From positions 794,914-816,916 of the forward strand of contig JAAOMT010000620.1 in NCBI GenBank assembly GCA_016748015.1: DNA of 22,003 bases. Direction: 5' to 3'. The notes beneath the pieces are model-generated. The model had not been told where the DNA came from. It did not search any database and was given only the letters and a program-made list of their open reading frames with translations. The position numbers and the translations under genes were made by a program. Each line of letters starts with the position of its first letter. The first letter of the stretch is position 1. Of the stretch, positions 1,332-21,843 are shown piece by piece. The stretch comes from Geosiphon pyriformis (taxonomy: Eukaryota; Glomeromycota; Glomeromycetes; Archaeosporales; Geosiphonaceae).

Positions 1332-1465
1332 TTAGGACTTTCTGTTTATGGTTAGCCGTATCTGATAATTTGTATTATTGGGTGAGCTGGTTTTATGAAA
1401 GTGCCACATTACTGTAGACATAACTAATAAACAACTGATATGGCTACACTTTAACAAAAAAAAAA
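368..1465 (+). mobile_element. ORF1-only non-LTR element, copy 1 (5'-truncated)
   Basis: Homology to the other copies starts abruptly within the RRM-linker region of ORF1 at about 368 and runs through the zinc-knuckle region, coiled coil, acidic part and 3' UTR. AATAAA lies at 1426-1431 and a 10-A tail at 1456-1465. 5' truncation with an intact poly(A) end is the usual product of target-primed reverse transcription. No convincing target-site duplication is seen. The right edge abuts a LINE reverse-transcriptase fragment on the opposite strand; the left edge abuts unrelated sequence, so the locus has been rearranged or the LINE 3' end was lost. Confidence 0.85.
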
Positions 1466-1842: not shown

Positions 1843-4262
1843 TTTTTTTTTTTTTTTAGTTAAGTTCACAGTAATATGGCAGTTTTATAAGCCAGCTTAT
1901 CCAATAATACAAAAATCACAAAATGTGACTAACCATAAGTAAAAAGCCCTAACTATATACTAATACTAACTTTGCTACTTAATATATTAAACATATCTAA
2001 TTTATACATCTTACCCATAATACATACAAGCTCATGACTACTCTTAACAAGACTACTCAGCCACTTAGCAGTCTGATCAGAATTAGATTTGATATTAGAG
2101 AATTGAACCTTCCATAATTTTATTATTGCATCAAATGTATTATTATAGACTGAAAATTTTTTTACATCATTATTATCATCATTATTGTCATCCATGTTTT
2201 CATTATCAAATATGTCAAAGTAGACCTTTCCACTTCTTAATTTAATGGCCTCTACTTCCTTTTGCAGCATAGAACTCACAGCACAAACAGCATTAATTTG
2301 GTTTCTCAATCCAATTACACTTTTTTTTATTGCTTCTGCCATAACAGATGGAGTAGATCATAATTTAGTAACCAACACAACCAAAAAACCTACAGACTCA
2401 AATATAAATTTGATCAACAAAGACAGTTCACTAAGTTGGGTTTCCAGAAAAGCCAATCTAGCATTAACAACAACATCTGAACCAGAGGAGACAATAAGCA
2501 ATAGAGGCACAACATCTTTAAAGGGAGCACCAAAAACCAGATTCATATCAGCAGCAGCAGCAACAGGAGGAACCACAAAAATAGCAGTTTTGGCATAGGA
2601 TTTAGCTCCAACAAAAAATGACTTGAAGATATTGAAACCACCAGCAAAATTAGAAGAGAGTTTGGGAGAAAAAGGTGACAACACCTTACAATCCACAGCC
2701 AAATAATCCAAACTTTGACATTTGTAGCAGTGACGACATCCAGAAGTTTTTTACCAGATACAGCAGCCATATAAAGTACCAGTTTTTGAAACAGCAGCAT
2801 TTAAAGATTCTAAGAAATCAAAGATTACCACAGCAAAGCATTAACATTAATAGAAATTAAGGGAGTGGGGAATAAAACATGTACAGACACCAACTTGGAA
2901 TACCAGATTACTTATTTTAAATACAGTGCAGCCAAATAGAAGATTGACCAACTTAGCTTTGAAAGCATCTTTTGAGGAGATAATTTCCTTTTGGTTAACA
3001 ATAGGAAGAATCCTAACACTGTTTTTTTTGACCAAAACAGACCAGTAAAAAAAAGTGATAGCAGCAGAAAAAGTGTCTTTAAAATTAATTACAGCATATT
3101 GCTATAAGCCAGTAGGCTTTAACTTAATAGACATAACAACACCAAAAATGCCAAGAACAGTTTTGATGTTATTGGAAGAGGTACTCAAAAGTATGTCATG
3201 CAGTGCAATTGACAGAGAAGAAGAAGAAACAGAGACCACACCAGAAAATCGTGCAATCTTAAGAGTAGTCAAAAAAACCTCATTACCAATGGCCACTTTG
3301 GTGACACCAATTAGACTCTCTTGAAATGCAAATTCCACACAGAACAACTTAACAGCATTTTGTAAAACTGACTTAAACCCAATACACCCAGGCAGCAGCT
3401 GAAACAAGAAACTAAGAAGAGCCATCTTGATCTTGAATATAGCACCAGGCACAAGAATAGAGGCCACCCATCCAGAGAACTTTTGTTGACCATTTACATT
3501 CATCCAAGCATTATCATCAGCAACACCAGAAACTGAAGAAGAAGTAGATGATTCTATTTTCATCTAATCAGTCCAATCTTTAAGATCATCTAAAATGTAG
3601 GCTGTTTTGCTTTTATGGCAAGAGATAATCTACTAGAGATTACCTCATCAGGCAACACAGCCAGTGGTTGATCTTGCTTTATATTAGGAGTTGAGCCATT
3701 GTTATTGCCATTTATATTAGGAAGAGGGCTGGCTGCTGCTGTAAAGATCTTATCCAAGATCTTATTTGGAACCACAAAGGAGTTCAGTGTGACCATAGCA
3801 GTTGTGACTACTTGCTATTGTTTTTTGGAATTTTTCACCTTTGTGGCCATTTGTGAAGCAGAGATAGTAGTAGTAGTAGTAATAATGAGAGTAATCAGAG
3901 CAAGAAAAACCAATTTGTTGACTGGTTTGTTATTAAAAATCTTTGGGCTTTTGAGATAGTAGAGACAATACTGGAACTAATCCAAATGTGTCTTTTTGAA
4001 AAAACTTTGACTGGTGAAAAACTACTAGACAAAGGTAAAGAAAATAAACCAAAAGCTGCTAAAGGCAGCTTGTCACTAGTATTTTTTAAAAAAAATGTAG
4101 CCAGAACATTTTGTCTAGCTGCTTTAATAACAGAGAGACTCTCTCATATTGAAACTTTATTAGTTACTATAAGAAAAATACTGTTTGCAACTTTTTTACT
4201 CTTAGCTCTAGTCATGGTTATGAAATTTAGGAGAAAAAAAGTTTTTTTAAGTAATTATTATC
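1843..4262 (-). mobile_element. ORF1-only non-LTR element, copy 2 (near full length)
   Basis: About 2.4 kb. The tail is a 15-T run at 1843-1857 on the plus strand. The 5' end carries the family's leader (run of A, ACTTTTTTTCTCC, then TTTCATAACC before ATG). It is flanked by an 11-bp duplication with two transitions and inserted in the LINE ORF2 between the linker and RT. Its 3' UTR is shortened: the usual AATAAA and the TGGCTACATGTTAAC block before the tail are missing. Its ORF1 C-terminal half belongs to the same subfamily as copy 6. There is no sign of endonuclease or RT. Confidence 0.85.
1953..4215 (-). pseudogene. Decayed ORF1, copy 2
   Basis: The start codon is intact: ATG at 4215-4213 begins MTRAKSKKVA, the conserved N-terminus of the family. 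The ORF is broken by stops and frameshifts into pieces at 3796-3590, 3563-3102 (the 153-codon part containing the RRM-like domain), 3035-2847 (RKNSVRILP-like and FIP motifs), 2711-2358 (after the CCHC knuckle, DYLAVDCK) and 2342-1953 (coiled coil, Asp/Asn-rich part, ending SISI). A conserved Trp is lost before the 2711 piece. Predicted ancestral role: binding element RNA in a ribonucleoprotein, as other LINE ORF1 proteins do. This copy cannot encode it. Confidence 0.8.
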
Positions 4263-4273
4263 CACTTTTGAGC
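4263..4273. repeat. Target-site duplication of copy 2, right half
   Basis: CACTTTTGAGC, partner of 1832-1842. It marks the 5' end of copy 2 on the minus strand and the point where the interrupted LINE ORF2 resumes. Confidence 0.65.
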
Positions 4274-5667
4274 TTTTTTGTTTACTAGCTTTTTGATTTC
4301 ATCAGAATTATCATGAAATTTGTCTTTTTTTATAACATAGTCCAGTACTATTCTTTGTTTTTTCTTGTTCAGAATGCTTTTAATCATTGCTTTTTTGTTT
4401 AGCTCAAAGTTTTGTTGTCTTTTGATGATATTGTTCACTATTTGTCTTTGCTATTGCAGTCTGATCTTAGTATACAGTGTAGATCTGTATTTTTTTTTGA
4501 TGCTTAGTAATTCTATAATTAAAAGAGTCATTAGATATGCATTAACTGTTTTAGGTTTTAATTGCTTCCATTTAGCCAACAGCTGCATAATATTGTTATC
4601 ATGCATATCTGCATTGTTTATTCTTATTTGTTTGATTATATCAGCAACAATCCTAACAAGCTTGTAATTCATGCATTTTTTTTTGTGTGTGCAGATTGGG
4701 CTCCCACTTTTTTTTTTGGTAGACAATTAGCAGATTGTAACACAGTCTCCTTGATTATAAGCCACATTTAGTTTAAATTATTATTGCTGTTATTTATCGA
4801 TTTTTTTTGTGCTTCATCTATTAGTTAATTAGTTTCTCTTGCATAGATCTCTTATTAAACTCTAGATGTTTTTTTAACATCTATTATAGTTGTGCTATAC
4901 TTCTTTCTTTCAAATCTAGATTTTTTAGTGCCTGCCAAGATTTTATCAAATCAAATAATTGTTACTACTGCTTTGTAATTAGTGCTAAATGATTTATTAA
5001 CATTAATCACTCTAATATTTGTATCCAGTGAGACTGTAACCACATCAGTAAACACATAGTCCAATCTTCTTTGTACTCTATTTGATGTCCATATATTATC
5101 TGAATTGTTTGCTGCATATATTCCATGTATATTCACCAGATTTATCTGTTGCAGCAATGTTGTAATAGGACATTTTTTTTTCTTGTTTGTGGCAAATGTT
5201 TTTTCAAGTAATTTGAATGCCAAATCTTCATTCAAATTACTTACCATTATGACAATTTTTTTGTTTTGTACAATGTCTGCTAAAAGCTTTCTAATCTCTT
5301 TTGCTACTGTCTTTTCAGTAGTTGATTTTAAAACAAGTATGTACAACCCAACTATGTGTACACTTATTCTACCTTTAAATTTTAATATCAGATGCAATAG
5401 TCTCCTATAATAATCCCTGATTACTTCCATGTAATAAGTCTAGCATTTTCTAACTAGTATACTCATCTCAGTTCTCATTTGTTTTTTAGTGCTTGACTTC
5501 CAAAAGACATGATATTTTTCAATGCCAAAAAACATCTTTTTTTCTTTGAGTAAGGTCAATTTAGTTTCTGTAATGGCCACAAAGTCAAACTGTTTGTCTT
5601 TAATCTATTGTAGTACTTCTTCAGCTTTGTCAGGATTGTTAAGTCCTTTAATATTAATAGTTCCTAT
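4274..5667 (-). pseudogene. LINE ORF2 endonuclease and linker, decayed
   Basis: The minus strand begins IGTINIKGLNN at 5667, a typical EEP/AP-endonuclease start, then DFVAITETKL with the catalytic Glu. The open piece 5430-4951 (159 codons) contains the remaining motifs in order: VHIVGLYIL, then IMVSNLNEDL where the family has GDFN, then RRLDYVFT, then STNYKAVV where the family has SDH. The Asp of GDFN has become Asn, and the Asp and His of SDH have become Asn and Tyr, so the nuclease is inactive. Pieces 4726-4451 and 4438-4274 are the Lys-rich linker before the RT, which resumes at 1842 beyond copy 2. Confidence 0.75.
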
Positions 5668-5719
5668 TTTTTAAATATTATTATTAGCAGTGTTTTGTTT
5701 TAAATTAAAGTTGGATGTA

Positions 5720-7978
5720 CTATATATTATCTGTTTCCATAAATTTAAATTTTCCAGCCATAATACCATTCCAATTATTCTGTTTTTTCATTTGTTTTAG
5801 CAGTATCATAATAATTTTTAGGGTCTTTTTAATTTCATCAATTTTTTTTTTTGAGTTGTATGTCTTTTTTTTCTCCTTTGAGTTATGTCTGGAGGTTATA
5901 TCCTGGTTTGCTTTTTTATTATCCCCTTTTTTCTTCTCTAATATATAACTTGGTAGTAGATTCATCACTTTGTTTTTTTTTTTCTCTACCATTATTCTCA
6001 GTTTGGCAGTCACAGCATTCAGTAGTTTAGCCATTTTATTAATCTGTTGTCTTAATTTATCAATTTCGGCTTTTTATGGCTGGTCTGCTCCCTTTTTTTG
6101 TTGGCTTTCTTTGTTGTTTACTTGTAAACCAGCTTTTTGAAAACCACTTGGATTTGTATTGTTCCTATTTTTAGATAAGTTTAGTGCTGCCATTTTAGCA
6201 TATGATTTTCTCCTAATAAGTTTTTTTGGTACATTTTTTCTAATATACAATTTGGCCAGTCATATATTGTTAGTATCTTTCTTGGTATTCTCCTCCTTTT
6301 TTTTAAGTAAAATAGGGCATTTTGAGACCAAGTGTTTAATCTAATAACAAAAATAACACTCTTTAGCATTAGTAGACATTCAGTGAACCAATGTGTTCCC
6401 AATCATCAAGAGCTTATTAGTAGCATTGTAACAATTGGCTTCACTATCAAACTCTATATAAGTACAGCCCATTTTGGTGTAGTTTCTGCTAGTTCTTGGA
6501 ATAAAGCAAGATTGGACTTTGATTTGATTCAGAGTGGTACTTAGATAGTGGGCAGTACAGTTCTGTAGTAGATCAATAAGTTTAGCTTTCCAGGTTTTCC
6601 TCTGCTTAATAATCTTTTGGGTATCTATCATTGGGTAAATTTTAACTGCATTTTTCCTAATCAGAGTTGACCATTGGTTCACAGCTTTAGTTGCTTTTTT
6701 TTGGTTGTTATATTCAATTACTGCTGACTGCCATTTTCCAGCCACTTTGATTTGAACTTTTTTAACCTCCCCAAATTTTTTTATAACAGTTTCAACTTCT
6801 CTGTCAGAAATACCCAAGAAAATATTTCTAACTAAAACTTTTTTTTGACCAGCCATTTGGTTGACAATGCCATCAAGAATGATTCAATTTTTTCATCTGT
6901 CAGGATTTTTCTGGCTTGATTTCTTCCAGCAATTTGGGAGAAATCTATTTGGATTTCTTGGTTTTTCACCATTACAGCCTCCAAAAGATAACTGATATCT
7001 CCCAACAGATTGTAAATCTACTCCACCTTCTTTTCCATGTTTTTTTCCAGTATGTCCAATATTTGCACAAAAAGCACATGTCTCTTGGTGCCATGAACAA
7101 CAGTTTTTTATCCTTCTTCTTAGTTTGCTTCTATAGACATGGCTTTTTTTCCAAATAATTTGCTACCTTTTTGGTCTGAATTTGGGCTTGACATTCTGCT
7201 TAATAAACTCAATTCAGAGTCTTCCATGTCCTTTACAGTTCGTTCTAAATCAGCTTTATCTTTGTTTATTTCAAATAGATTGTCTATTTGCTCATCAAAT
7301 TTCTCTACAGATTTTCTTTTGTTGATCTTGTCCAAAATCTCAGAATTGCATTTTCTCAAAGTTGTTTCAATCTGCACTGCTCTTTCAACATCTTTAATAG
7401 ACAGTTTGAGTGGTTTATCCAATTTCTTTTGTGATTTTGATGCCTTGTTTTCACCAATCCAAGCTTCTATTTGAAACTTATTACTGTTCTCTCCTTTGTT
7501 AAACATTGGTCACAAGACAAAATTGTTGGTCTGGTCTGTTGTTTTATTAGTAAGTTCCTCTTCAATAATCTGGTTAAATCTTTTTAATAGGCCTTTTACA
7601 CTTATTTTTTCCAAGTGTCTGTATTTTTTATTGGGTTTTTCTTCTAGTCTGTTGTCTGTTAATAGAGAAAAGTCAGCTGCTCTTCAGTGTAAAGCTGTTT
7701 TTTTGATGTATTAGCAATTCTAAAGGGTGTGTCATCTTTACTGCTTGTGTTTACACTTCTAATTGTTCTACTGCTATGTTCAAACCTGAATGAAAATGTT
7801 ATAGGTCTCATATTTTCAACCAGTATTTGGTTTAATATGATTGTGTTATTTCCTTCCTTTCTTCCACTTGGTCTTTATACTCAGTAGTATCTTTGCTTGT
7901 ATTTCTGTTCATAACTGTTGTCACTTCACTATTAGTATTGTTATCAAACACTTTAAAGTCAGTTATAATAATTAAGTG
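5720..7978 (-). pseudogene. LINE ORF1 (coiled coil, RRM, CCHC), decayed
   Basis: Reconstructed only as a series of broken pieces. About 7978-7850 gives a charged N-terminal part. 7506-7120 (128 codons) and the frame after it (ILDILEKNMEKKVEQI) are heptad-rich coiled coil. 6856-6380 (158 codons, starting MAGQKKVLVRNIF) is an RRM-like domain followed by the region with WSTLIRKNAVKIYP and SCFIPRTSRNY. A CCHC knuckle follows at 6358-6317. 6034-5720 is a Lys-rich C-terminal part. The RRM-to-knuckle part aligns by eye with the ORF1-only elements (WSVLVRKNSIRILP, TCFIP). Expected role: RNA-binding chaperone of the LINE RNP. Frameshifts and stops make it non-functional. Confidence 0.75.
6317..6358 (-). 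other. CCHC zinc knuckle of LINE ORF1
   Basis: The minus strand reads C-X2-C-X4-H-X4-C (CYFCY, one stop codon TAG, then IKHLVSKC). The stop at 6343-6341 lies between the second Cys and the His. The spacing is the classic retroviral/LINE gag-type knuckle and matches the spacing in the ORF1-only copies. Confidence 0.8.
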
Positions 7979-8003
7979 TACTTTAATTAAGGATATCTTT
8001 TAG

Positions 8004-8081
8004 AAAAAAAAAAAAAAAAACTATTTTTCTAAATTTGAGACATAGTAAATTTTGTGGTAGCAGACAAAGAAAGAAAAAAGT
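8004..8081. other. A-rich spacer between LINE 5' end and copy 3
   Basis: A run of 17 A (8004-8020) is followed by about 60 bp with no match to the repeats I can see here. It could be the poly(A) tail plus flank of a lost element, or LINE 5' UTR. I cannot assign it. Confidence 0.4.
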
Positions 8082-9201
8082 TTTTTATAGAAATAGAATC
8101 ATCTGCTCCTCTCCCAATTTCTGGTGCTGCTAATAGTGGTGCTTGGATAAATGTGATTTGATTGACTGAAATTTTCTGGGTAGGTGGCCTTTATTCTTAT
8201 GCCTGGTGTCACATTCAAGATCAAGATGGCCTTTTTTAGTTTTTTGTTTTAGCTGCTGCCTGGTTGTATTGGGCTTAAGTCAGTTTCATGAAATGTTGTC
8301 AAGTTGTTCTGTGTGAAATTTGCATCTCAGAAGAGTTTAACTGGTGCCACCAAAGTGGCCATTGGTAATGAAATTTTTTTGACCACTTTTAAGATTGCAT
8401 GGTCTTTTGGTGTGGTCTCTGTTTTTTTCCCTCTCTGTCAGTTGCACTGTATAATGTACTCTTGGGAATCTCTTTTAATGACATCAAAACTGCTCTTGGC
8501 ATTTTTGGTGTTGTTACTTCTGTTAAGTTGAAGCCTATTGGTTTATGACAATATGTTGTAGTTCATTTTGAAGATACCTCTTATGCTGCTACTGCTCTCT
8601 CTTATTGGTCTGTTTTGGTTAGGAAAAACAGTGTTAGAATTTTTTCTATTGTCAATTAAAAGGAAGTTATTTCCTCAAGAGATGCTTTCAAAGCTAAGTT
8701 GGTCAATCTCCCATTTGGCTGTATTGTTTTTGAGATAAGTAATTTGGTCTCCCAAGTCAGTGGCTGTACATGTTTCATTCCTTACTTCCCAGAATTTTAC
8801 TAATGTCAATGTTTTGCTGTGGTTATTTTTGATTCTTTGGAATCTCTGAATGTTGCTGTGTTAAAAACTGGTACTTTGTATGATTGCTGCATCTGGTAGG
8901 AAACTCTTGGATGTCACCACTGCTACAAATGTTAAGACTTGAATTATTTGGCTGTGAACTGCAAAGTATTATTTCTTCTCTCACCCAAATTTTCTTTTAA
9001 TGTTTTTGGTGGCCTCAAAGTTTTCAAACCTTCATTTGCTGAATCTAAATTTTATGTCAAAACTGTTGTCTTTGTGGTTTTTTCTGTTGTTGCTGCTGCT
9101 AATATGAACTTGGATCTTGGTGGTCCTTCCAAACTGCAACACCCATGTTGTCTGCTGTTCTTTCTGCTCCCAATTTTGCTGTTGAATCTAGGTTGGCTTC
9201 T
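8082..9201 (+). pseudogene. Decayed ORF1 of copy 3, segment 1
   Basis: This covers the central part, RRM-like domain, knuckle and post-knuckle linker, with many frame changes. Readable parts are 8304-8531 (CVKFASQKSLTGATKVAIG), the region near 8625 (VLVRKNSVRIF), 8750-8800 (VSQVSGCTCFIP) and 8939-9217 (NYLAVNCK onward; the last few codons fall in copy 4's poly(T)). It ends within VESRLAS, where copy 4 is inserted. Codons for conserved Trp are damaged, for example at the HIW-W site near 8892. Confidence 0.75.
9188..9201. repeat. Target-site duplication of copy 4, left half
   Basis: CTAGGTTGGCTTCT, immediately before the poly(T) of copy 4. The partner CTAAGTTGGCTTCT is at 11639-11652 (13 of 14 identical, one transition). 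Both lie in copy 3's ORF1, and joining across them restores the family's order. Confidence 0.9.
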
Positions 9202-11638
9202 TTTTTTTTTTTGTTAATGTGTAGTCACACTGGTCGTTTATTAGTCATGACTACAGTAATGTGGTGTTTTCATAAAGCCAGCTTACCCAATAATACAAAA
9301 TCACAAGATGTGACTAACCACAAGTGAAAAGCCCTAACTATATGCTAGTACTATCTTTGCTATCTAATATATCAAACATATCTAATTCATACATCTTACC
9401 CATAATGCTAACAAGCTTATGACTATTTTTAATCATATCACTCATCCACTTAGCAGTCTGATCAGAACTGGATTTGATTTTGGAAGGCTGATCTTCCCAT
9501 AGATGTATCATAACATCAAAGGTGTTATTATAAACTGAAAAGTTTTTATTGTTATCATCATTATCATCAACATTATCAACCATATCATCAACATCAAATC
9601 CATTTTTTAAGCAGACCTGTTCACATATTTTCTCAAAGCATATCATTTTTTTTGCATCACAGTAACAACAGCAAGCTTTTATTTTGCTTAGCCAACCCAT
9701 CTACACATTCCTTAACTGACACATCTATGGCAGATAAAGTAGACAGTAATTTGGTAACCAATGCAACCAAAGCACCAACAGATTCAACTAAGGATTTTAT
9801 CAACACAGATAGTTCACTAAGGTGGGATTCCAGAAAAGCCAACCTGGATTTAACAGCAGAATTGGAAGCAGAAGGGACAGCAGGAAACATGAATGTTGCA
9901 GTTTTGAAAGAACTACCAAGATCCAAGTCCATATCAGCAGCAGCAGCACCAGAAGGAACCACAAAAGCAGCAGCTTTGGCATAAGATTTAGATCTAACAA
10001 ATGAAGATTTGAAATTTTTGGGACCACCAAAGGTGTTAAAAGAGAGTTTGGATGGAAAAAGAGGTAACTTTTTGCAATTCACAGCCAAATGATTCAAGTC
10101 TTGATACCTGTAGTAGTGGTAACATCTAGAAGTTTCTCACCAGATATGACAACCATGCAAGATACCAGTTTTTGACACAGCAACATTCAGAGATTTCAAA
10201 GAATCAAAAGTAACCACAGCAAAGCATTGATGTTGATAAGATTCAGAGAAGCAAGGAATAAAACATGTACAGTCACCAACTTGGGAGACCAAGTCACTTA
10301 TCTTAAAAACAATACAGCTAAATAGAAAGTTGACCAACTTAGCTTTAAATGCATCTTTTAAGGAAATAACTTTTTTTTGGTTGGCAATAAGAAGAATCCT
10401 AATACTATTTTTTCTGACCAATACAGACCAGTTAGAGAGAACAGCAGCAATAGAAAAAATGTCTTCAAAATTAACCATAGTGTATTGCCATAAGTCAGCA
10501 GGCTTTAACTTAACAGAAGTGACAACACCAAAAATGCCAAGAGTAGTTTTGATGTCATTAGAAGAAGTACCCAAAGGTATGTCATGCAGTACAACTAACA
10601 AAGAAGGAGAAGAAACAGAGGCCACATCAGAAGACTGTGCAATCTTAAAAATGGTCAATAAAATCTCATTACTGATGGCCACTTTGGTGGCATCATTTAG
10701 ACTCTCCTGAGATGCAAATTCCACACAAAACAACTTAACAGCATCTTGTAAAACTGACTTAAGCCCAATACAACCAGGCAGTGACTGAAACAAGGAACTA
10801 AGCAGAGCCATTTTGATCTTAAATGTAGTATTAGGTACTAGATTGGAGGCCACTCAACCAGAGAATCTCTGATGATTATTTACATTCTCCCAAGCACTGC
10901 TATCAACAGTACCAGAAACTGGGAAAAAGACAGTTAATTTCATTTCTATCTGATCAGCCCAATCTTTGAGATCATCTGAATTAATGGACTGTTTTGCTAC
11001 TGGGATTGGTGATGATCTGCCAGAGAGTACCACATCAGACAACACAGCCAGTGGTTGATCTTGGCCCATCTTGAGAGATGTGCTGCTGCTGTTGCTATTT
11101 ATATCAGGAAAAGAGCTGGCTGCTACTATGGAGATCTTACTGAAGATCTCATCTGGAACCACAAAGCAGTTTGGTGTAACCATAGCAGTTGTGACTGTTT
11201 GCTGCTGTTTTTTGGAATTTTTTGCTTTTGCAGCTATTTGTGAAGCAGTAGTAATAAAAATAGTAGTGAAAGTGGTGAGAGCAGAAAAGACCAACTTATT
11301 GACTGGTCTGTTATTAAAAATTTTTGGGCTCTTAAAAGCAGTAGAAACAACACTAAGACTAATCTAAGTGTGTCTTTTGAAAGGAATTTTGACTGAAGAA
11401 GAACTATCAGCCAAAGGTGAAGGAAATGAACCAGAAGCTACTAAAGGCAGCTTTTTACTACTATTTTTTAAAAAAAATGTTGCCAGAACGTTTTGTTTAG
11501 CTGTTTCAATAACAGAGAGACTTTCTCGTGTTAAAACTTTATTAGTTACTATAGAAAAAGTAATGTTTACAACTTTTTTACTCTTAACTCTATTCATGGT
11601 CATGAAAATTAGAAGAAAAAAAGTTTTACTGTTTTTTC
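9202..11638 (-). mobile_element. ORF1-only non-LTR element, copy 4 (full length)
   Basis: A complete unit of about 2.44 kb: 5' leader (AAAAAACAGTAAAACTTTTT on the minus strand), ORF1 from 11597 to 9338, a 3' UTR of about 125 bp, AATAAA (plus-strand TTTATT at 9237-9242) and a poly(A) tail (poly(T) from 9202). It is flanked by a 14-bp target-site duplication. Because the duplication brackets the unit exactly, the absence of any ORF2 is original to the element. It is inserted antisense inside copy 3, a member of its own family. Confidence 0.92.
9338..11597 (-). pseudogene. ORF1 RNA-binding protein, copy 4 (least broken RRM region)
   Basis: The start is ATG at 11597 (MNRVKSKKVV); an in-frame ATG also lies two codons upstream. 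Pieces on the minus strand: 11597-11364, 11294-10854, 10853-10137, 10097-9657 and 9700-9338. The 238-codon piece 10853-10137 holds the RRM-like domain (HDIPLGTSSNDIKTTLGIFG, then WQYTMVNFED as the RNP1-like strand), then WSVLVRKNSIRI and CTCFIP. A stop replaces the second Trp of the HIWW site. The knuckle is damaged: its first two Cys read Tyr. A frameshift lies near 9680. The C-terminus has the coiled coil, an Asp/Asn-rich run and ends DSKDSTSI. Role inferred: nucleic-acid-binding ORF1 protein. Confidence 0.85.
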
Positions 11639-11652
11639 CTAAGTTGGCTTCT
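11639..11652. repeat. Target-site duplication of copy 4, right half
   Basis: CTAAGTTGGCTTCT, partner of 9188-9201. Copy 3 resumes here with the coiled-coil codons (LASLEFHLSELSVL). Confidence 0.9.
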
Positions 11653-11870
11653 CTGGAATTCCATCTTAGTGAACTGTCTGTATTAATAAAATCTTTGGTT
11701 AAACCTGTTGGTGTTCTGGTTGTATTAGTTACCAAATTGCTGTCTATTCCATCTGCAAAATAAAAGCTTGGCTGCTGTTGCCACCATAATGCAAAATAGA
11801 ATAATACACCTTAAGAAAAAATGTGAATGGGTCTGCTTGGAGAATGGATTAGATGATGACAACATGGTTC

Positions 11871-11931
<61 letters not shown>
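11871..11931 (+). repeat. (AAT)n trinucleotide microsatellite, about 20 units
   Basis: An uninterrupted AAT/ATA run lies inside the Asp/Asn-rich part of copy 3's ORF1, where other copies carry short GAT/AAT mixtures. In the ORF frame it reads as about 20 Asn residues after MVH. It probably grew by slippage from an existing AATAATAAT stretch. Confidence 0.9.
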
Positions 11932-11932
<1 letters not shown>

Positions 11933-11957
11933 GACATTCAGTCTATAATAACACCTT

Positions 11958-11972
11958 TAATATTATGATGCA
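11958..11972. repeat. Target-site duplication of copy 5, left half
   Basis: TAATATTATGATGCA. The partner TAATGTTATGATGCA is at 14380-14394 (14 of 15 identical, one transition). It lies in copy 3's ORF1 codons just before the conserved HLWEDQP. Confidence 0.9.
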
Positions 11973-14379
11973 AAAAATAAATTCTATGGAGAAAAACTCT
12001 TTCTCTCCTAATTTTCATAACCACAATTAGAGCTAAGAGTAAAAAAGTTGCAAACAATACTTTTCCTATAGTAACTAATAAAGTTTTAACATGAGAAGGT
12101 CTCTCTGTTATTGAAATAGCTAGACAAAACATTCTGGTAATATTTTCTTTAAAAAATACTAATGAAAGACTGCCTTTAGCAGTTTCTGGTTCATTTTTTT
12201 TACTTTTGGCTGGTAGTTCTTCTTCAGTCAAAGTTCTTTCCAAAAATCACATTTGAGTTAGCCTTAGTGTTGTCTCTACTGCCTCTAAAAAACCAAAGAT
12301 TTTTAATAACAGATTAGTCAACAAGTTGGTCTTTTCTGCTCTTACTATTTCCATTACTATTTCTACTACTACTGCTTCACAAATAGTTGCAAAAGCAAAA
12401 AATTTCAAAAAACAGCAGCAGGCAGTTACAACTGCTATGGTTACACCAAACCCCTTTGTGGTTTCAGATAAGATTTTCAGTAAAATTTCCACAGCAGCAG
12501 TCAGCTCTCTTTCTGATTTAGATGGCAACAGCAGCAACATATCTCCCAAGATAGGCCAAGATCAACTACTGGCTGTGTTGCCTGATGTGGTACTTTCTGG
12601 CAAATCATCACCAATCCCAGTAGCAAAACAGTTCATCAATTCAAATGATTTTAAAGATTGGGGTGATCAGATAAAAATGGAATCAACTGTCTCTTTCCCA
12701 ATTTCTGGTGCTGCTGATGGTGGTGCTTGGGAGAATGTAAATGGTTATCAGAGATTTTCTGGTTGAGTAATCTTCAATCTAGTACTTGGTGCTATATTTA
12801 AAATCAAAATGGCCCTGCTTGGTTTTTTGTTTCAGTTGCTGCCTGGTTGTATTGGGCTTATGAAATGCTGTTAAGTTGTTCTGTATGGAATTTGCATTTT
12901 AGAAGAGTCTAAATAGTGCTACCAAAGTGGTCATTAATAATAAGATTTTTTTAACTACTCTTAAGATTGCATGGTTTTTTGGTGTGGTCTCTGTTTTTTT
13001 CCCTTCCTTGTCAGTTATACTGCACAACATACTCTTGGGTACCTCTTTTAATAACATTAAAACTGCTTTTGGCATTTTTGGTGTTGTCACTTCTGTTAAG
13101 TTGAAGCCTGCTGACTTATGGCAATATGCTGTGATTAACTTCAAAGACACTTTTTTTGCTGCTGCTGCTCTTTCTAACTAGTTGGTATTAGTCAAAAAAG
13201 ATAGTATTAGGATTCTTCCCATTGCCAACCAAAAGGAGATTATCTCTTTAAGAGATGCATTCAAAGTTAAGTTGGTCAATCTTTTATTTGGCTGTATTGC
13301 CTTTAAGATAAATGATTTGGTCTCCCAAGTTGGTAACCATACATGTTTCATTCCTTGCTTCCCTAAATCTTATTAATGCTAACACTTTGCTGTGGTTACT
13401 TTTGATTCTTTGGAATCTTTGAATGTTGCTGTGTCAAAAACTGGTATTTTGTGTAATTGCTGCATCTAATGAGAAACTCCTGGATGTCACCACTACTATA
13501 AGTATTAAAACTTAAATCATTTGGCTGTGGACTACAAGAAGTCACCTCTTCTCCCATCTAAACTATCCTCCAACACTTTTGGTGGCCCCAAAATTTTCAA
13601 ATCTTTGTTTGCTGGATCTAAATCTTATGCCAAAGCTGCTGCTTTTGTAGTTCTTCTTGGTGCTGCTGCTGTTGATATGGACTTAAATCTCAATGGTCTT
13701 CCCAAAACTACAACACCCATGGTGTCTGCTGTCCCTTCTGTTCCCAATTTTGCTGTTGAATCTAGGTTGGCTTCTTTGGAATCCTATCTTAGTAAACTAT
13801 CTGTGTTAATAAAATCCTTAGCTGAACCTGTTGGTGCTTTGGTTGTATTGGTTATTAAATTGCTATCTACTCTAACTGCTATGGATGTGTCAGTTAAGGA
13901 ATGTATAGATGGGTTGGCTAAGCAAAATAAAGACTTGGCTGCTGTGACCATAGTGATGCAGAAAAAAATAACATGCCTTGAGAAAAAATGTAAACAGGCT
14001 GGCTTAGAGGATGGATCAGATGTTGACAATAAAGATTTTTCAGTTTATAATAATACCTTTAATATTATGATGCACCTATGAGAAGATCAGCCTTCTAGTA
14101 TCAAATTCAGTTTTGATTAGACTGCTAAATAGATAAGTGGTATGATTAAAAATAGTCATAAGCTTGTTAGCATTATGAGTAAGATGTATGAGTTAGATAT
14201 GTTTGAATCTGTAGGTAGCAAAGATAGTACTAGTATGTAGTTAAGGCTTTTCACTAGTGATTAATCACATCTTGTAAACTTTGTATTATTAGGTAAGCTG
14301 GCTTTATGAAAGTGCCAACTCTATTGTTAAACAAACTAATAAACAATCAGTGTGGCTACATATTAACATAAAAAAAAAA
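11973..14379 (+). mobile_element. ORF1-only non-LTR element, copy 5 (full length)
   Basis: A complete 2.4-kb unit bracketed by a 15-bp target-site duplication inside copy 3. The 5' leader holds GAAAAACTCTTTCTCTCC, then TTTTCATAACC. ORF1 follows, then a 3' UTR with AATAAA at 14338-14343 and an A-rich tail at 14370-14379. No ORF2. I found no CpG dinucleotide anywhere in the unit. Copies 4 and 5 lie head to head, about 334 bp apart, in the same host copy. Confidence 0.92.
12023..14240 (+). pseudogene. ORF1 RNA-binding protein, copy 5, decayed
   Basis: The start codon is lost (ACA at 12023-12025 where other copies have ATG before ACTAGAGC). Open pieces: 12326-12766 (low-complexity N-terminal part through WENVNGYQRFSG), 12927-13181 (RRM-like domain), 13182-13376 (KKDSIRILP and TCFIP), 13521-14081 (186 codons: after the knuckle, linker, coiled coil, short acidic part). 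Conserved Trp codons are stops at 12764-12766, 13179-13181, and twice in a row at 13467-13472 (TAA TGA for the WW of HIWW). A deletion near 12860 shifts the frame. The knuckle's first Cys pair is partly lost (codons near 13490-13505). The end is TAG at 14238-14240. Confidence 0.85.
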
Positions 14380-14394
14380 TAATGTTATGATGCA
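14380..14394. repeat. Target-site duplication of copy 5, right half
   Basis: TAATGTTATGATGCA, partner of 11958-11972. Copy 3 resumes here. Confidence 0.9.
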
Positions 14395-14551
14395 CTTATG
14401 GGAAGATTAGCCTTATAATATCAAATCCAGTCCTGATTAGACTGTTAAGTAGATAAGTGGTATAGTTAAGAATAGTTATAAGCTTGTTAGCATTATGGGT
14501 AAGATGTATGAATTAGATATGTTTGATATATTAAGTAGCAAAGATAGTTAG
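14381..14551 (+). pseudogene. Decayed ORF1 of copy 3, segment 3 (C-terminus)
   Basis: This is the last codons of copy 3's ORF1, equivalent to MHLWEDQPSSIKSS through SSKDS, with TAG at 14549-14551. Gln and Trp codons of the conserved QTAKW are stops (TAG, then TAG). The 3' UTR and tail follow to 14659. Confidence 0.75.
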
Positions 14552-14671
14552 CTGCATCTTGTGATTTGTATTATTAAGTAAGCTGGCTTTATAAAAGCAC
14601 CACATTACTGTAGACATAACTAATAAATAACTGGTGTGGCTATATGTTAACAAAAAAAATAAATAGGCTTT

Positions 14672-15943: not shown

Positions 15944-16899
15944 TTGCACAAACAATCAAATTTCTATTTGATTCATCAGAACCAGTTATATAAAAGAAAT
16001 AGAAAAGATCCTGACTGTTTCCAGAGAGTTATCAGATTTGAAGAAAGAGAAATTGTAATATACAACATACACACTGACTCATTAGTTAGACATCTTAGAA
16101 AAACAAAAACAATTCAGAAAACTTTAGCTTGCTATTATTGGCCTACTTTGGAAAAAAACATTGCCAAATACATCAAAACCTGTGACATCTGCCAAAAAAA
16201 AGGAGAACTTAATCACAAAGAAGATATCTATTTAATATCTGTTAGTCAACTATTTGACAGAATTGGTATAGATGTTATTGGATCCTTAACCATAACTCCT
16301 AATAACAATAGATACATTATCACAGCTCTTAACTATCTTACAAAATAAGTAGAAGCAAAAGCCACTTCAGACCAAACAGCAGTCTCAATAGCCAATTTTA
16401 TTTATGAAGATATTATCTACTATCATGGCCATTTCAAAGAACTTTTATCTGATAAAAGAAGAGCTTTTCTTAGTACACTGGTTGAAAAACTTTGTAGAAA
16501 AATAGGAATATGTTATAAACTTTTTTCTTCTTACTACTCTTAAACAAATGGCTTAGTGAAATGTTTCAATAGAACATTATACAAAACCTTAACCAAAACC
16601 AGTAAAAAAATAAACTTATGGGACAAAGTACTGCTTTTAGTTTTGTTTTCTTATAGAACTGTGAATTATAACATAACAAGTTATAAACTTTTTTATCTGC
16701 TCTATGGATGCATAACAACACTATCAATAGAAACTGACATTAAAACAATACTCTTTGAAGAAATTAAAATAAAGAATTATAAAAACATTTTGCAAAGAAG
16801 ACTTGGTATCATTCTTAACTCCTTGATAGAAACACAAATAGTTGTTTTTGAAAAGATAAAACAGTTTCAAGAAAAGCTTAAAAAAAAGAAAAGAAAAAA
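15944..16899 (+). pseudogene. Gypsy integrase (HHCC and DDE), decayed
   Basis: 15944-16348 (134 codons) carries the H-H-C-C zinc-binding motif (HTDSLVRHL, then YWPTLEKNIAKYIKTCDICQ) and the first catalytic Asp in IGIDVIGSLT. The second Asp is in LLSDKRRAF near 16451. The third acidic residue is lost: the family's NGLVERFNRTL reads NGLVKCFNRTL, with Lys from AAA at 16559-16561, and the preceding Gln codon is a TAA stop at 16541-16543. 16556-16933 continues with VLFSYRTVNYNITSYKLFYLLYG (family: 'A.RtS...SPF.L.YG') up to the insertion of copy 6 near 16900. Confidence 0.85.
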
Positions 16900-16925
16900 C
16901 TTTTTTTCTCCTAAAATTTATGACT

Positions 16926-19163
16926 ATGACTAGAGCTAAGAGTAAAAAAGTTGAAAACATTACTTTTCTTATAATAACTAATAAAGTTTCAACATAAGAA
17001 AATCTCTCTGTTATTAAAGCAATTAGACAAAATATTTTGGCTACATTTTTTTTAAAAAATATTAGTGAAAAGCTGCCTTTAGTGGCTTCTGGTTCATTTT
17101 CTTTACTTTTGGCTGGTAGTTTTTTTCCAGTCAAAGTTCCTTCCAAAAAACACACTCAGGTTAATTTTAGTGTTGTCTCTACTACTTCTAAGAGCCCAAA
17201 GATTTTTAATAACAGACCAGTCAACAAGTTGGTTTTTTCTGCTCTCATTATTCCTACTACTATTATTATTACTACTGCTTTACAAATGGCCATAAAAGCC
17301 AAAAATTTTAAAAAACAACAGCAGGCAGTCACAACTGCTATGGTCACACCAAATTTCTTTGTGGTTCCAGATGAGATCTTAAGTAAAATCTCCACAGTGG
17401 CAGCCAGTCCTCTTTCTAATATAGATAGTAACAGCAGCAGCATATCTTCCAAGATGGGCCAAGATTAACTACTGGCTGTGTTGCCAGATATGATACTCTT
17501 CAGGAGATCATCACCAATCCTGAAAGCAAAACAGTCTATCAATTTAAATGATTTTAAAGATTGGGCTGATCAGATGAAAATGGAATCAACTGCTCCCTCC
17601 CAGTTTCTGATGTTGCTAATAGTAGTGTTTGGAAAAATGTGAATGGTCATCAAAAGTTTTTTGGTTGGGTGGCTTCCAATCTTGTACTTCATGCTACATT
17701 TAAGATCAAAATGGCCCTGTTTAGTTTTTTGTTTCAGTTGCTGCCAGGCTGTATTGAGCTTAAGTCTGTTTTAAAAGATACTATTAAGTTGTTCTGTGTG
17801 AAATTTGCATCTCAAGAGTGTCTAAATAATGTCATTAAAGTGGCTATTAGTGATAAAATTTTCTTAACCACTCTTAAAATTGCAAAATTTTTTGGTTTTT
17901 TCTCCTCTTTTTTCAGTTGCATTTCATAATCTACTTTTGGGTATCTTTTCTGATAATATTAAAGCTGCTCTTGGCATTTTTGGTGTTGTTACTTCAGTTA
18001 AGTTAAAGCCTGCTGATTTGTGGCAATATGGTGTGGTTCAATTTAAAGACATCTTTTCTGCTGCTGTTGTTCTTGGTCACTAGTTTGTGCTGGTTAGAAA
18101 AAACAGTGTTAGAATTCTACCTTTAGTAAACCAAAAGGAGGTTATCTCTTCAAGAAATGTTTTCAAAACTAAGTTGGTCAATTTTTCTTTTGGCTGTACT
18201 GCCTATGAGATAAGTAATTTGGTCTTTCAAGTTGGTGACTATATGTGTTTTATTCTTCACTCTCTTGAATCATACTGACATCAACAGTTTGCTATGATTG
18301 CTTTTGATTTCTTAGAATCTTTGAACTTTGCTGTATCAAAAACTGGTACTTTACATGGCTGCCACATCTGGTGGAAAATTTTTGGATGTCACTGCTGCTA
18401 CAAATGTCAAGGTTTGAATCATTTGGCTGTAGACTGCAAGGTGTCACCACTTCTTTCTTCCAAATTTTTTTCCAACTCTGCTGGTGGTTTCAAAGTTTTC
18501 AAATCTTCATTGGTTGGTGCTAAATCTTATGCTAAAACTGTTTTTGTGGTTCTTCCTGTTGCTTCTGCTGCTAATGTGAAACATGTTCTTGGTGCAACCC
18601 CTAAAGCTGGATTATCTTTAGTTCCTGTTGTTGCTTCTGTTCCAGATTCTGTTGTTGAATCTAGATTGGTTTCTTTGGAATCTCATCTCAATAAGTTGTC
18701 TTTGTTGATCAAGTCTATAATTGAACCTGTTGGTTTTCTGGTTGTTTTGGTTACCAAACTGCTGTCTACTCCACCTGTTGTAAATGGGTCTATAGAAGAA
18801 AGTTTAATAGGAGTGAAAAAACAAGTTAAAGCTATGGCTGCTGTGATTTTCATGCTGCAAAAAGACATAGGATTCTTAAAAAAAAAGTGTGAACAGGATT
18901 CTTTGGAAGCAGCATCTGATGATGAAGACATAAATAATAATAATGACAATAATAAAGATTTTTCAGTCTATAATAACATCTTTGATGTTATAATGCATTT
19001 ATGGGAAGATCAGCCTTCCAGTATTAAGTCCAATTCCAATTAGACTGTTAAGTAAATAAGTGGTATGATTAAGAATAGTCATGAGCTTGTTAGCATTATG
19101 AGTAAGATGTATAAATTAGATATGTTTAATACATTAAGTAGCAAAGATAATACTAGTATGTAG
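16926..19163 (+). pseudogene. ORF1 RNA-binding protein, copy 6 (intact knuckle)
   Basis: The start is ATG at 16926 (MTRAKSKKVE); another in-frame ATG is at 16920. Pieces: 17037-17468 (N-terminal low-complexity part, ending SKMGQD at a TAA that replaces Gln), 17639-17929 and 17880-18083 (RRM-like domain split by a frameshift), 18087-18278 (VRKNSVRILP), and 18294-19043 (249 codons). The last contains an intact C-X2-C-X4-H-X4-C knuckle (CYKCQGLNHLAVDC at 18396-18437), the coiled coil (SRLVSLESHLNKLSLLI), a Lys-rich segment and an Asp/Asn run. The conserved Trp at 18081-18083 is TAG. QTAKW near the end is also broken. The stop is TAG at 19161-19163. Role inferred: RNP-forming RNA-binding protein. 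Confidence 0.85.
18396..18437 (+). other. Intact CCHC zinc knuckle in copy 6 ORF1
   Basis: CYKCQGLNHLAVDC has exact C-X2-C-X4-H-X4-C spacing. It is the only undamaged example among the copies here; in copy 8 the His is Tyr (CQGLDYLAMDC), and in copy 4 the Cys pair reads Tyr. Confidence 0.85.
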
Positions 19164-19320
19164 TTAGAGCTTTCCACTTGTGGTTAGCTACATCTTGTGA
19201 TTTTTGTATTATTAAGTGAGCTGGCTTTATAAAAGTGCCAACTATATTGTTAGACAAACTAATAAATAATCAGTGTGGCTACATGTTAACAAAAAAAAAA
19301 AAAGAAAAAGAAAAAGAAAA

Positions 19321-19560: not shown

Positions 19561-19893
19561 AATACTGATCCAAATAATCAGCAAAAATCAAGTATAAATA
19601 AATGCATCATTCCCAAAACAGAGGTATCTTTAATTAACATAAACAATTATTTTCTGGATCAAAACATTCAAAATGCCTTTTATACTTTCCATGAATATTG
19701 GATCAAAAATTATCTAAATGCTACTCTGACCATTGAAAAACAAACCACTATAACTGATAACAGTAAAACACATACTGTTATTAGACCAAAGAAAACTACT
19801 ACCAGAAAAGAAAGAATTAGTAGCAAAATGAATAAATATTTATTAAAAAGTATAACAGCAGTAATAGTCTCACTTTTTTTTTTTTTTTGTTAA
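19543..19893 (+). CDS. Unrecognised short ORF fragment
   Basis: An open frame of 116 codons overlapping the end of the Gypsy remnant in another frame. I do not recognise the protein. Features seen: an Asn/Gln-rich start (CGNTDPNNQQKSSINKC), a middle part NNYFLDQNIQNAFYTFHEYW, and a Thr/Lys/Arg-rich end (RPKKTTTRKERISSKMNKYL). The last residues (a run of Phe) are only translation of copy 7's poly(T), so the true frame is cut at 19873. The first few codons may be Gypsy sequence read out of frame. It could be an ORF downstream of Gypsy pol, part of another transposon, or chance. It is not an intact gene. Confidence 0.3.
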   Translation: MVACCGNTDPNNQQKSSINKCIIPKTEVSLININNYFLDQNIQNAFYTFHEYWIKNYLNATLTIEKQTTITDNSKTHTVIRPKKTTTRKERISSKMNKYLLKSITAVIVSLFFFFC

Positions 19894-20223
19894 CATATAG
19901 CCACATTAGTTGTTTATTAGTTATGTTTACAAAATTGTGATGCCTTCATAAAGCCAGCTCACCCAATAATACAAAAATTACAAGATGCAGCTAACTACAA
20001 GCAGAAAGCCCTAATTACACACTAGTACTCTCTTTATTACTTAATATATTAAACATATTTAATTTATATATCTTACTCATAATGCTTATAAGCTCATGAC
20101 TATTCTTAACCATACCACTTATCTACTTAGCTGTCTAATCAGGATTGGATTTAATACTGGGAGACTGATTTTCTCATAAATACATCATAACATTAAAGAT
20201 ATCATTATAGACTGAAATATCTT
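19874..20223 (-). mobile_element. ORF1-only non-LTR element, copy 7 (3' fragment)
   Basis: The poly(A) tail is the 15-T run at 19874-19888 on the plus strand, AATAAA is read from TTTATT at 19913-19918, and the 3' UTR and the last ~70 codons of ORF1 follow. It stops at about 20223, where copy 8's 5' leader begins on the opposite strand. Either it is a 5'-truncated insert or copy 8 cut it; its missing part does not reappear within the window. Confidence 0.8.
20015..20223 (-). pseudogene. ORF1 C-terminus, copy 7
   Basis: The minus strand matches the family end from FSVYNNTFDVMMHLWEDQP to the terminal STS motif, with the stop TAA at 20017-20015. The Trp of HLWED is a stop (ATGAG context near 20176), and the QTAKW site carries further stops. 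Too short to do anything. Confidence 0.7.
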
Positions 20224-21843
20224 ACAAAAACTCTTTCTTTTTTAAATTTTATAACCATAACTAGAGCTAAGAGTAAAAAAGTTGCAAACAGTATTTTTTC
20301 TATAGTAACTAATAAAGTTTTAATATAAAAAGATCTTTTTGTTATTAAAGCAGCTAAACAAAACATTTTGGCAACATTTTCTTTAAAAAATATTAGTAAA
20401 AAGCTGTCTTTAGCAGCTTTTGGTTCATTTTTTTTACCTTTGGCTGGTAGTTTTTCTCCAGTCAAAATTCCTTCCAAAAGACACACTTGGATTAGTTTGA
20501 GTGTTGTCTCTACTACTTTTAAGAGCCCAAAGATTTTTAATAACAGACCAGTCAACAAGTTGGTCTTTTTTGCTCTTATCACTCTCACTACTACTACTAC
20601 TACTGCTTCACAAATAGCTGTAAAAGCCAAAAATTCCAAAAAACAGCAGCTGGCACTTATAACTGCTTTAGTAACACCAAACTTCTTTGTAGTTTCAGAT
20701 GAAATCTTGGATAAGATCTCCACAGCAGTAACCAGTCTTCTTCCTAATATGGATAGCAACAGCAGTATTACATCTCCTAAGATGGGCCAAGATTAACTAC
20801 TGGCTGTGTTGCCTGATATGGTACTCTCTAACAGATTATTGCCAATTCCAGTAGCAAAACAGTCCATAATTTTAGATGATCTCAAAAATTGGGCTGATTA
20901 GATGGAAATAAATCAACTGTCTTTTTCTCAGTTTTTGGTGCTGCTGTTAGTAATGCTTGGAAGAATGTAAATGGTTGTCAGAGATTCTCTGGTTGGATGG
21001 CCTCCAATCTGGTACCTGATGCTACATTTAAGATCAAAATAACCCAGCTTAGTTTTTTGTTTCAGTTGCTGCCTGGTTGTATTGGACTTAAGTCAATTTC
21101 ACAAGATATTATTAAGTTGTTCTGTGTAGAATTTGCATCTCAGGAGAATCTAACTGGTGTTACCAAAGTGGCTATTAGTGATGAGATTTTTTTGATCACT
21201 CTTAAGATTACACAGTTGTCTGGTGTAACCTATGTTTCTTTTCTCTCTTTGTCAGTTGTGCTGTATAACATATTTTTAGGTACCTTTTCTAATGACATCT
21301 AAAATGCTCTTGGCATTTTTGGTGTTGTTACTGCTATTAAATTGAAGTCTGTTGGCTTATGGCAATATGCTGTGGTTTATTTTAAAGATACTTTTTTTGC
21401 TGTTACTGCTCTCTCACACTGATTTGTATTGGTTAGAAAAAACAGCATTAGCATTTTTTAAAGCTAAGTTGGTTAATCTTTCATTTGGCTATACCGTATT
21501 TGAAATTTGGTTTTCCAAGTTGGTAGCTGTACATGTTTTATTCTTTACTCCCCTAATTTTTATCAATATTAACACTTTGCTGTGATAACTTTTGAGTTCT
21601 TGGAATCTTTAAACACTGTTGTTTCAAAAACTGGTACCTTACGTGACTGCCACATTTGGTAGGAAACTCCTGAATGTTACTGCTGCTACAGATGTCAAGG
21701 TTTAGATTATTTGGCTATGGACTGTAAAGTGTTGTCACTTTTCCCTCCCAAATTCTCTTCCAATTCTGCTGGTGGTTCTAAAATCTTCAAGTCATTCTTT
21801 GTTGAAGCTAAATATTATGCCAAAGCTGCCACTGTTACGGTTT
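20224..21843 (+). mobile_element. ORF1-only non-LTR element, copy 8 (3'-truncated)
   Basis: The 5' leader ACAAAAACTCTTTC lies directly next to copy 7. Homology runs through the N-terminal part, RRM-like domain and knuckle and stops at about 21843, within the post-knuckle linker (KYYAKAA). It has no coiled coil, 3' UTR or tail, so this is 3' loss after insertion rather than ordinary 5' truncation. CpG-bearing non-repeat sequence follows. Confidence 0.82.
20257..21843 (+). pseudogene. Decayed ORF1 (N-terminal two thirds), copy 8
   Basis: The start codon is ATA at 20257-20259 (a G-to-A change of the family's ATG before ACTAGAGC). Open pieces: 20368-20796 (142 codons, ending SPKMGQD at TAA for Gln), and 20997-21302 (GWMASNLVPDATFKIK to the RRM-like domain). 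The CAC-TGA at about 21419-21423 replaces the conserved His-Trp. About 40 bp are deleted near 21460, removing most of RILPIANQKE. The knuckle near 21685-21725 has Tyr in place of the zinc-binding His. Ends with the truncation. Confidence 0.8.

What the first reader, a model, noticed from the sequence alone, without database searches (positions are those of the whole stretch)
9202..14379. A HAL1-like, ORF1-only non-LTR retrotransposon family in a fungus
Copies 4 and 5 are complete insertions with target-site duplications of 14 and 15 bp. Each holds a 5' leader, one ORF1-type gene, a short 3' UTR with AATAAA and a poly(A) tail, and nothing else. Copies 2 and 6 have the same structure. The missing ORF2 is thus a fixed trait of a mobile family with at least eight copies in 22 kb. 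Mammalian HAL1 elements are the known parallel; I know of no description in early-diverging fungi. The element must obtain endonuclease and RT in trans while supplying its own RNA-binding protein.
Basis: partly seen in the sequence, partly recalled or inferred. Interest (0 to 1): 0.8.

Follow-up and report, generated by a model that had tools for sequence, protein, structure and literature searches.

The report
Gag-only jumping genes with borrowed tails
The window is full of jumping genes that make only an RNA-binding protein and no copying enzyme, yet carry the same RNA tail as an enzyme-making jumping gene that lives beside them, which they probably depend on to move.

Summary
Confirmed: a 2.4-kb, A-tailed, ORF1-only non-LTR retrotransposon (here H-A) with real target-site duplications (13 of 17 complete copies; 1 of 272 mismatched flank pairs). 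Copies elsewhere in the genome also lack ORF2: 13 of 13 complete ones read, and 15 of 18 random ones run straight into the tail (3 are cut by other insertions first).

(2) A LINE with EN, RT and RNase H (LINE-A), present in the window, shares its whole 3' UTR with H-A, although the ORF1 proteins are only about 33% identical; H-A is no recent deletion of LINE-A. (3) A second, dispersed ORF1-only family (H-B, 15 of 15 without ORF2 before the tail) has H-A-type ORF1 (49-65% identical) but a 3' UTR resembling that of another LINE, LINE-B. Tails follow the partner, not the ORF1. (4) H-A and LINE-A lie in about one island per contig; LINE-B and H-B do not.

Best reading: a gag-only lineage moved in trans by LINEs whose tails it carries. 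Movement in trans and any centromeric role are inferred. HAL1 and HeT-A are analogues, not the same family.

The parts
368..1465 (+). H-A copy c1, 5'-truncated, ends in an A-run
1849..4246 (-). H-A copy c2, full length at the 5' end, last ~40 nt of the 3' UTR missing; inserted in LINE-A
4261..8086 (-). LINE-A, 5' end to beyond the EN region, many stops; interrupted by c2. 74% identical to L023, 82% to L018. Pfam found no EN match in the window's own piece
1465..1852 (-). LINE-A continued beyond c2: RT N-terminal part, 82-86% identical to L023 and L018
6383..6883 (-). LINE-A ORF1 core with RRM (RRM_1 35.2 bits)
8087..14665 (+). H-A copy c3, 5'-truncated host copy, present as 8087-9201, 11639-11972, 14380-14665; interrupted by c4 and c5
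9188..9201 (.). target-site duplication of c4, one side
9202..11638 (-). H-A copy c4, complete (homology 9202-11630, then 8 extra bases)
10140..10853 (-). RRM region of c4, longest open piece (RRM_1 27.3 bits)
11639..11652 (.). target-site duplication of c4, other side
11958..11972 (.). target-site duplication of c5, left
11992..14379 (+). H-A copy c5, complete
14238..14370 (+). 3' UTR of c5 from the ORF stop to the A-run: the tail shared with LINE-A
14380..14394 (.). target-site duplication of c5, right
16895..19302 (+). H-A copy c6, complete
18279..19040 (+). C-terminal open piece of c6 with CCHC knuckle (zf-CCHC 19.2 bits, just under the cut-off of 20.8)
19874..20223 (-). H-A copy c7, 3' end only
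20226..21836 (+). H-A copy c8, 3' part missing

Best explanation
H-A is a non-autonomous, gag-only non-LTR retrotransposon. Its one gene makes an ORF1 protein (N-terminal part of unknown fold, a confidently modelled RRM, a second RRM-like part, a CCHC knuckle) that most likely coats its RNA. Endonuclease, reverse transcriptase and RNase H are most likely supplied in trans by LINE-A, which recognises the 3' tail that both RNAs share; insertion is by target-primed reverse transcription, leaving an A-tail and a duplication of about 9-17 bp. Shown: ORF1-only structure, duplications, A-tails, a co-resident LINE with the same 3' UTR, a second ORF1-only family with a 3' UTR resembling that of a second LINE. 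Inferred: protein function, enzyme supply in trans, tail recognition, and that the H lineage took its tails from its partners (for example by template switching near the stop codon).
For: No ORF2 in 13 of 13 complete H-A copies read, 10 of them picked because no 3' end was listed, 1 for a nearby RT, 2 as controls; of 18 drawn from 107 unread C-terminal hits 15 run into the tail, 3 are interrupted. TSDs 13 of 17 vs 1 of 272. LINE-A tail: 4 of 4 loci picked by RT hit alone (L024-L027) carry it, E 6e-18 to 9e-21, and L023's tail matches 6 window copies at E 3e-17 to 6e-28. The shared segment runs from the last codons before the stop to the A-run, 117 of 152 columns alike by majority base, w_c2 and L022 left out. 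Tail pairing: H-A/LINE-A median z 13.6, H-B/LINE-B 8.5, the four other pairings 0.2-2.3. H-A and H-B ORF1 cores 49-65% identical, 25-34% to both LINEs. Transversions at codon position 2 against fourfold sites 0.46. Tail RNA of H-B+LINE-B: 14 of 28 pairs with changes on both sides, 0 of 500 shuffles. LINE-A RT cores: 60 of 64 within 50 kb of H-A hits, LINE-B 0 of 86.
Against: No functional or expression data. Transitions show no selection (ratio 1.10); three young H-B copies give dN/dS 0.59-0.86 with too few transversions to judge. All 17 aligned H-A copies have stops; L048 is open for 726 codons, then stops before the usual end. Tail z ranges touch: lowest H-B/LINE-B 4.6, highest cross pair 4.8 (H-A/LINE-B), and identity over aligned columns does not separate H-B/LINE-B (0.72) from cross pairs (0.72-0.75); 2 of 12 random H-B tails gave no blastn match to LINE-B's tail at E 0.001. 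The tail structure was derived from the nine sequences on which it was counted; the H-A/LINE-A structure has 3 of 33 pairs with double changes. A shared tail could come from recombination without a role in recognition. At 3 of 15 H-B loci a LINE-B ORF2 piece in the same orientation lies about 100-300 bp beyond the A-tail. The second RRM is poorly modelled.
Confidence: 0.82

Rival explanations
1. H-A copies are recent internal deletions of LINE-A that lost ORF2.
For: Same 3' UTR and a similar pyrimidine-rich 5' end seen by eye.
Against: ORF1 about 33% identical, and no DNA similarity between corresponding parts outside the tail; a second ORF1-only family shares the H ORF1 but not this tail.
Confidence: 0.04
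2. An autonomous LINE with H-type ORF1 existed and lost ORF2 separately in the H-A and H-B lines, so gag-only status is not ancestral to both.
For: Grouping of the H-A and H-B ORF1s does not show what their ancestor carried; only about 150 of 1641-4491 first-look candidates were scored per search.
Against: No H-type ORF1 next to ORF2 in 46 sampled copies (13 + 18 H-A, 15 H-B), 3 of which are cut before the tail.
Confidence: 0.2
3. Processed copies of a host RRM-CCHC gene, moved by LINEs.
For: A-tails and TSDs are what processed pseudogenes have too (general knowledge).
Against: The ORF is homologous to LINE ORF1s, the 3' UTR is that of a LINE, over 140 scored hits in each family. A source gene with introns was not looked for.
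Confidence: 0.04
4. Gag-only elements are real, but any LINE RT in the cell moves them, by the A-tail alone; the tail match reflects old recombination without function.
For: L1 moves Alu and SVA/LAVA in trans (PMC2666806 and PMC7353768, abstract starts in the listings); that the A-tail suffices there is recalled.
Against: Two separate tail matches, each with the LINE of the same compartment, and covariation in the H-B/LINE-B tail.
Confidence: 0.25

Closest known systems
HAL1 (half-L1) of mammals
   Same: Non-autonomous derivative of a LINE that 'encodes only ORF1p' (PMC5753468, passage).
   Different: HAL1s derive from L1 and arose several times. H-A ORF1 is an RRM-CCHC type, about 33% identical to that of its tail-sharing LINE, and one H lineage carries the tails of two different LINEs.
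HeT-A with TAHRE/TART of Drosophila telomeres
   Same: Abundant gag-only element lacking pol, a rarer gag-pol relative beside it, confined to a special part of each chromosome (PMC5537684, passages).
   Different: HeT-A forms head-to-tail arrays at chromosome ends, and TAHRE Gag resembles HeT-A Gag. H-A is inserted internally, in both orientations, nested, with TSDs; its partner's ORF1 is distant.
EKA family (Avrk1/Avra10 homologues) of barley powdery mildew, from the ORF1 of the LINEs Satine and Kryze
   Same: Many ORF1-bearing copies in a fungus; ORF2 was found behind 1 of 34 full-length Avrk1-like copies searched (PMC4641428, passages).
   Different: Described there as truncated LINE copies and co-opted effectors, with two-ORF LINEs whose ORF1 is 67-99% like the genes compared; the passages seen make no claim of a mobile ORF1-only element with TSDs or of a shared tail.
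SINEs that share a 3' tail with a partner LINE (recalled, from no call)
   Same: Short non-autonomous element with the 3' end of a LINE.
   Different: H-A is protein-coding, with an ORF of about 755 codons; a tRNA-type head was not looked for.

Membership tests
HAL1 | ORF1 only, no ORF2 | tested here: met
HAL1 | ORF1 of the L1 type, derived from an L1 | tested here: not met
   Pfam matches above or near cut-off are RRM_1 and a sub-threshold zf-CCHC, none an L1 ORF1 model; nearest LINE ORF1s about 33%. The clade of LINE-A was not determined
HeT-A | gag-only non-LTR element | tested here: met
HeT-A | head-to-tail telomeric arrays in one orientation | tested here: not met
   both orientations, nested, TSDs
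non-LTR retrotransposon | A-tail and target-site duplication of variable length | tested here: met
non-LTR retrotransposon | moves through RNA by target-primed reverse transcription | not testable with these tools
   needs an assay
tail-sharing LINE/non-autonomous pair | 3' end homologous to that of a co-resident LINE | tested here: met
tail-sharing LINE/non-autonomous pair | partner RT needs that tail | not testable with these tools
   needs an assay

The most novel reading that the evidence does not exclude
A single ancient gag-only retrotransposon lineage persists by swapping 3' tails to match whichever LINE is active in its compartment; its H-A branch and LINE-A form a pair confined to about one island per chromosome, probably the centromere or pericentromere, an internal counterpart of the HeT-A/TAHRE telomere system.
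Probability: 0.35. Interest if true: 0.82.

Novelty: new variant of a known kind. Interest (0 to 1): 0.63.

Why it matters
Gag-only non-LTR elements are known from few systems (recalled). Here two families with the same ORF1 type carry the tails of two different LINEs in one genome, which makes tail-dependent parasitism of LINEs directly testable by swapping about 130 bp. The per-contig islands give candidate centromere markers; for R. [quoted passage not shown] Whether this genome is a relative of that species is not settled.

Tried and rejected
A Ty3/gypsy RT behind an H-A copy in L019 (2.1-kb pair) looked like ORF2, but its sequence is gypsy-type (read by eye). RIP-like decay: C-to-T in 7 decayed copies, at sites judged from 8 less decayed ones, is 0.23, 0.27, 0.23 before A, C, T, so no CpA preference; CpG could not be scored. 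A composite H-A + LINE-A insertion with one common TSD in L018: LINE-A is cut by an LTR-like insertion and its 3' end was not reached in two further stretches, so this is open. Species: the recalled 22-base primer AML2 has one site with 1 mismatch, GLOM1310 none; not decisive. The second structure model (LINE-A ORF1) was weak (mean pLDDT 55) and was not searched. L049, fetched as a second LINE-B, is N over much of its length and was used only for its RT-to-RNase H part.

Literature: searches on Rhizophagus LINE/ORF1, HAL1, ORF1-only (0 papers), Rhizophagus TEs, Rhizophagus LINE and half-L1 showed in their listings no paper titled for a gag-only LINE family in a fungus; the nearest is the EKA paper. 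Only listings (up to 15 rows each) and find-passages were seen, and bioRxiv is not held. Listings alone were seen for Grem-LINE1, a Mucor LINE that I recall as pericentromeric, for Rhizophagus centromeres and primers.
Full report
OBSERVATION. A self-comparison of the window gives eight copies of one family. c2, c4, c5 and c6 are full length or nearly so. c4 and c5 have duplications of 14 and 15 bp, each with one mismatch; both lie in an older copy (c3), and c2 lies in LINE-A. With 13 further complete copies from the genome, true flank pairs score >=9 in 13 of 17 and mismatched pairs in 1 of 272.

ANATOMY. The element is about 2.4 kb. A leader of about 30 nt ('AAAACTCTTTCTC...') precedes one ORF of about 755 codons, followed by a 3' UTR of about 130 bp and an A-run. 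Domains: RRM_1 (21.8 and 27.3 bits, cut-off 20.7) and a zf-CCHC match just under its cut-off (19.1-19.2 vs 20.8). A model of the window's c4 RRM region has mean pLDDT 65 with the first RRM near 90; its best PDB hits are mostly RRM proteins, one at E below 0.001. The second RRM-like part is poorly modelled.

IS ORF2 EVER THERE? The best 40 hits of the 5' end, 150 of the C-terminus and 40 of the 3' end were paired: 29 of 40 5' hits reach a listed C-terminal hit at 1.94-2.18 kb, one at 2.48, one at 11.4 kb, nine have none. I then read 13 complete copies: 10 picked because no 3' hit was listed, hence likeliest to be longer, one for an RT nearby, two as controls; 13 of 13 are collinear with c5 to the tail. 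Of 107 remaining C-terminal hits 18 were drawn at random: 15 run into the tail, two are cut by the same LTR-like insert, one by a nested H-A copy; what lies beyond these three inserts was not read. With an N-terminal search (150 listed hits), 99 pair at 1.88-2.16 kb, 13 at other distances, 38 have no listed partner.

THE PARTNER. The window holds a broken LINE (LINE-A), 8086-4261 and 1852-1465 on the minus strand, split by c2. Better copies (L018, L022, L023) have ORF1 with RRM and CCHC, EN (PF03372), RT (PF00078, 30.0 bits in L023, 22.3 in L022, cut-off 29.6) and RNase H (PF00075); the window's own EN piece gave no Pfam EN match. RNase H with a zinc-finger-like ORF1 is what one paper gives for the I superfamily (PMC4641428, passage); I did not classify LINE-A. 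Its 3' UTR is that of H-A: L024-L027, chosen by RT hits only, all have it (4 of 4, E 6e-18 to 9e-21); L022, L023, L028, L029, chosen with help of the tail motif, have it too, L022 interrupted. L023's tail matches six window copies at E 3e-17 to 6e-28. The shared piece starts in the last codons before the stop. Corresponding parts of the two elements show no other DNA similarity, and the ORF1 proteins are about 33% identical. The tail motif has 37 sites in the genome against 0 for the reversed control; 36 of 37 lie within 100 kb of an H-A hit.

A SECOND FAMILY. Three were read (L051-L053) and 12 more at random: 15 of 15 are ORF1, a 3' UTR of about 130 bp and an A-run. Their ORF1 core is 49-65% identical to that of H-A; both are 25-34% identical to those of the LINEs. 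Their tail resembles that of LINE-B (L050; EN, RT and RNase H by Pfam), not that of LINE-A or H-A. Of the 12 random tails, 10 match LINE-B's tail by blastn at E 2e-4 to 1e-9, two do not at 0.001. Global alignment against 40 shuffles per pair, with 8 H-A, 5 LINE-A, 11 H-B (4 of 15 left out) and 3 LINE-B tails, two LINE-A tails being cut short by the script: median z 13.6 (lowest 6.6) for H-A/LINE-A, 8.5 (lowest 4.6) for H-B/LINE-B, 0.2-2.3 for the four other pairings (highest single 4.8). Identity over aligned columns does not separate H-B/LINE-B (0.72) from cross pairs (0.72-0.75). At 3 of 15 H-B loci (L052, L057, L063) LINE-B ORF2 pieces in the same orientation begin beyond the A-tail, at different points within ORF2; I read them as separate, truncated LINE-B insertions.

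SELECTION AND RNA. Over 136 pairs of 17 H-A copies, transversions at codon position 2 relative to fourfold sites are 0.46, as for a protein kept by selection; transitions give 1.10, as for decay after insertion. All 17 have 1-14 stops. Three young H-B copies give dN/dS 0.59-0.86. The H-B/LINE-B tail (6 + 3 sequences) folds with 14 of 28 pairs showing changes on both sides, 0 of 500 shuffles reaching this, and slid controls at 28-41% paired against 93%; the structure comes from the same nine sequences. The H-A/LINE-A tail shows 3 of 33.

WHERE THEY LIE. The 150 C-terminal hits are on 40 contigs, 38 with one cluster at a 100-kb gap; several contigs have only one or two hits. With N hits and LINE-A added, 42 contigs, 5 with more than one cluster. 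LINE-A RT cores are within 50 kb of an H-A hit in 60 of 64, LINE-B in 0 of 86; within 100 kb 61 and 2. H-B: 2 of 144 within 50 kb, on 94 contigs in all. The zone is about 4.5% of the genome; the binomial P of 1e-75 treats copies as independent, which nested copies are not. Because only the best 150 candidates were scored, low-scoring H-A copies elsewhere are not excluded. Centromeres are a guess.

MECHANISM. The H protein most likely binds its own RNA, and a LINE supplies EN and RT in trans through the shared tail. In both families the tail goes with the LINE partner and the ORF1 does not, which fits capture of LINE tails by one gag-only lineage. With LINEs as outgroup the tree joins H-A and H-B (splits 0.946-0.956), but the root is assumed, and separate loss of ORF2 is not excluded.

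KNOWN PARALLELS. HAL1 'encodes only ORF1p' and arose several times (PMC5753468, passage). HeT-A lacks pol, and TAHRE pairs a similar Gag with Pol (PMC5537684, passages). In barley powdery mildew the EKA genes come from LINE ORF1s, and ORF2 was found behind 1 of 34 full-length Avrk1-like copies searched (PMC4641428, passages): ORF1-rich LINE copies in a fungus are thus not new in themselves. The R. irregularis TE papers searched list LINE clades or a LINE R1 and have no occurrence of 'ORF1' or 'non-autonomous' (hyphenated) in the main text (PMC11075540; PMC8647823).

LIMITS. 

Noticed in passing
G000 contigs with H-A/LINE-A, window island C394:758167-823723: H-A and LINE-A form about one island (up to 149 kb) per contig on some 40 contigs; candidate centromeres or pericentromeres.
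   Followed up: partly
window 14666-16890: Broken Ty3/gypsy-type element: RVT_1 (61 bits) and Integrase_H2C2 (51 bits) pieces; end coordinates are those of the neighbouring H-A copies.
   Followed up: partly
window 21833-22003; L037 and L040 (RC) about 180-190; L022 (RC) 7570-8220: LTR-like sequence with TGTTAC near its start (by eye); in L037 and L040 it interrupts H-A just before the stop codon, and in L022 a similar sequence, reversed, interrupts the LINE-A 3' UTR.
   Followed up: no
L018 (RC) 2439-2445: H-A A-run joins directly, without visible TSD, to a 5'-truncated LINE-A in the same orientation; could be end-to-end template jumping. LINE-A 3' end not reached.
   Followed up: partly
G000:C317:1168088-1169622 (-): N-terminal part 77% identical to the H-A query, RRM part 81% to the H-B-type query: possible recombinant ORF1.
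   Followed up: no
L052 2945, L057 910, L063 964 (element orientation): LINE-B ORF2 pieces in the same orientation shortly after H-B A-tails in 3 of 15 loci.
   Followed up: no
G000:C320:1045481-1045502: One site for the recalled mycorrhizal SSU primer AML2 with 1 mismatch; hints at, but does not show, a Glomeromycotina relative.
   Followed up: no
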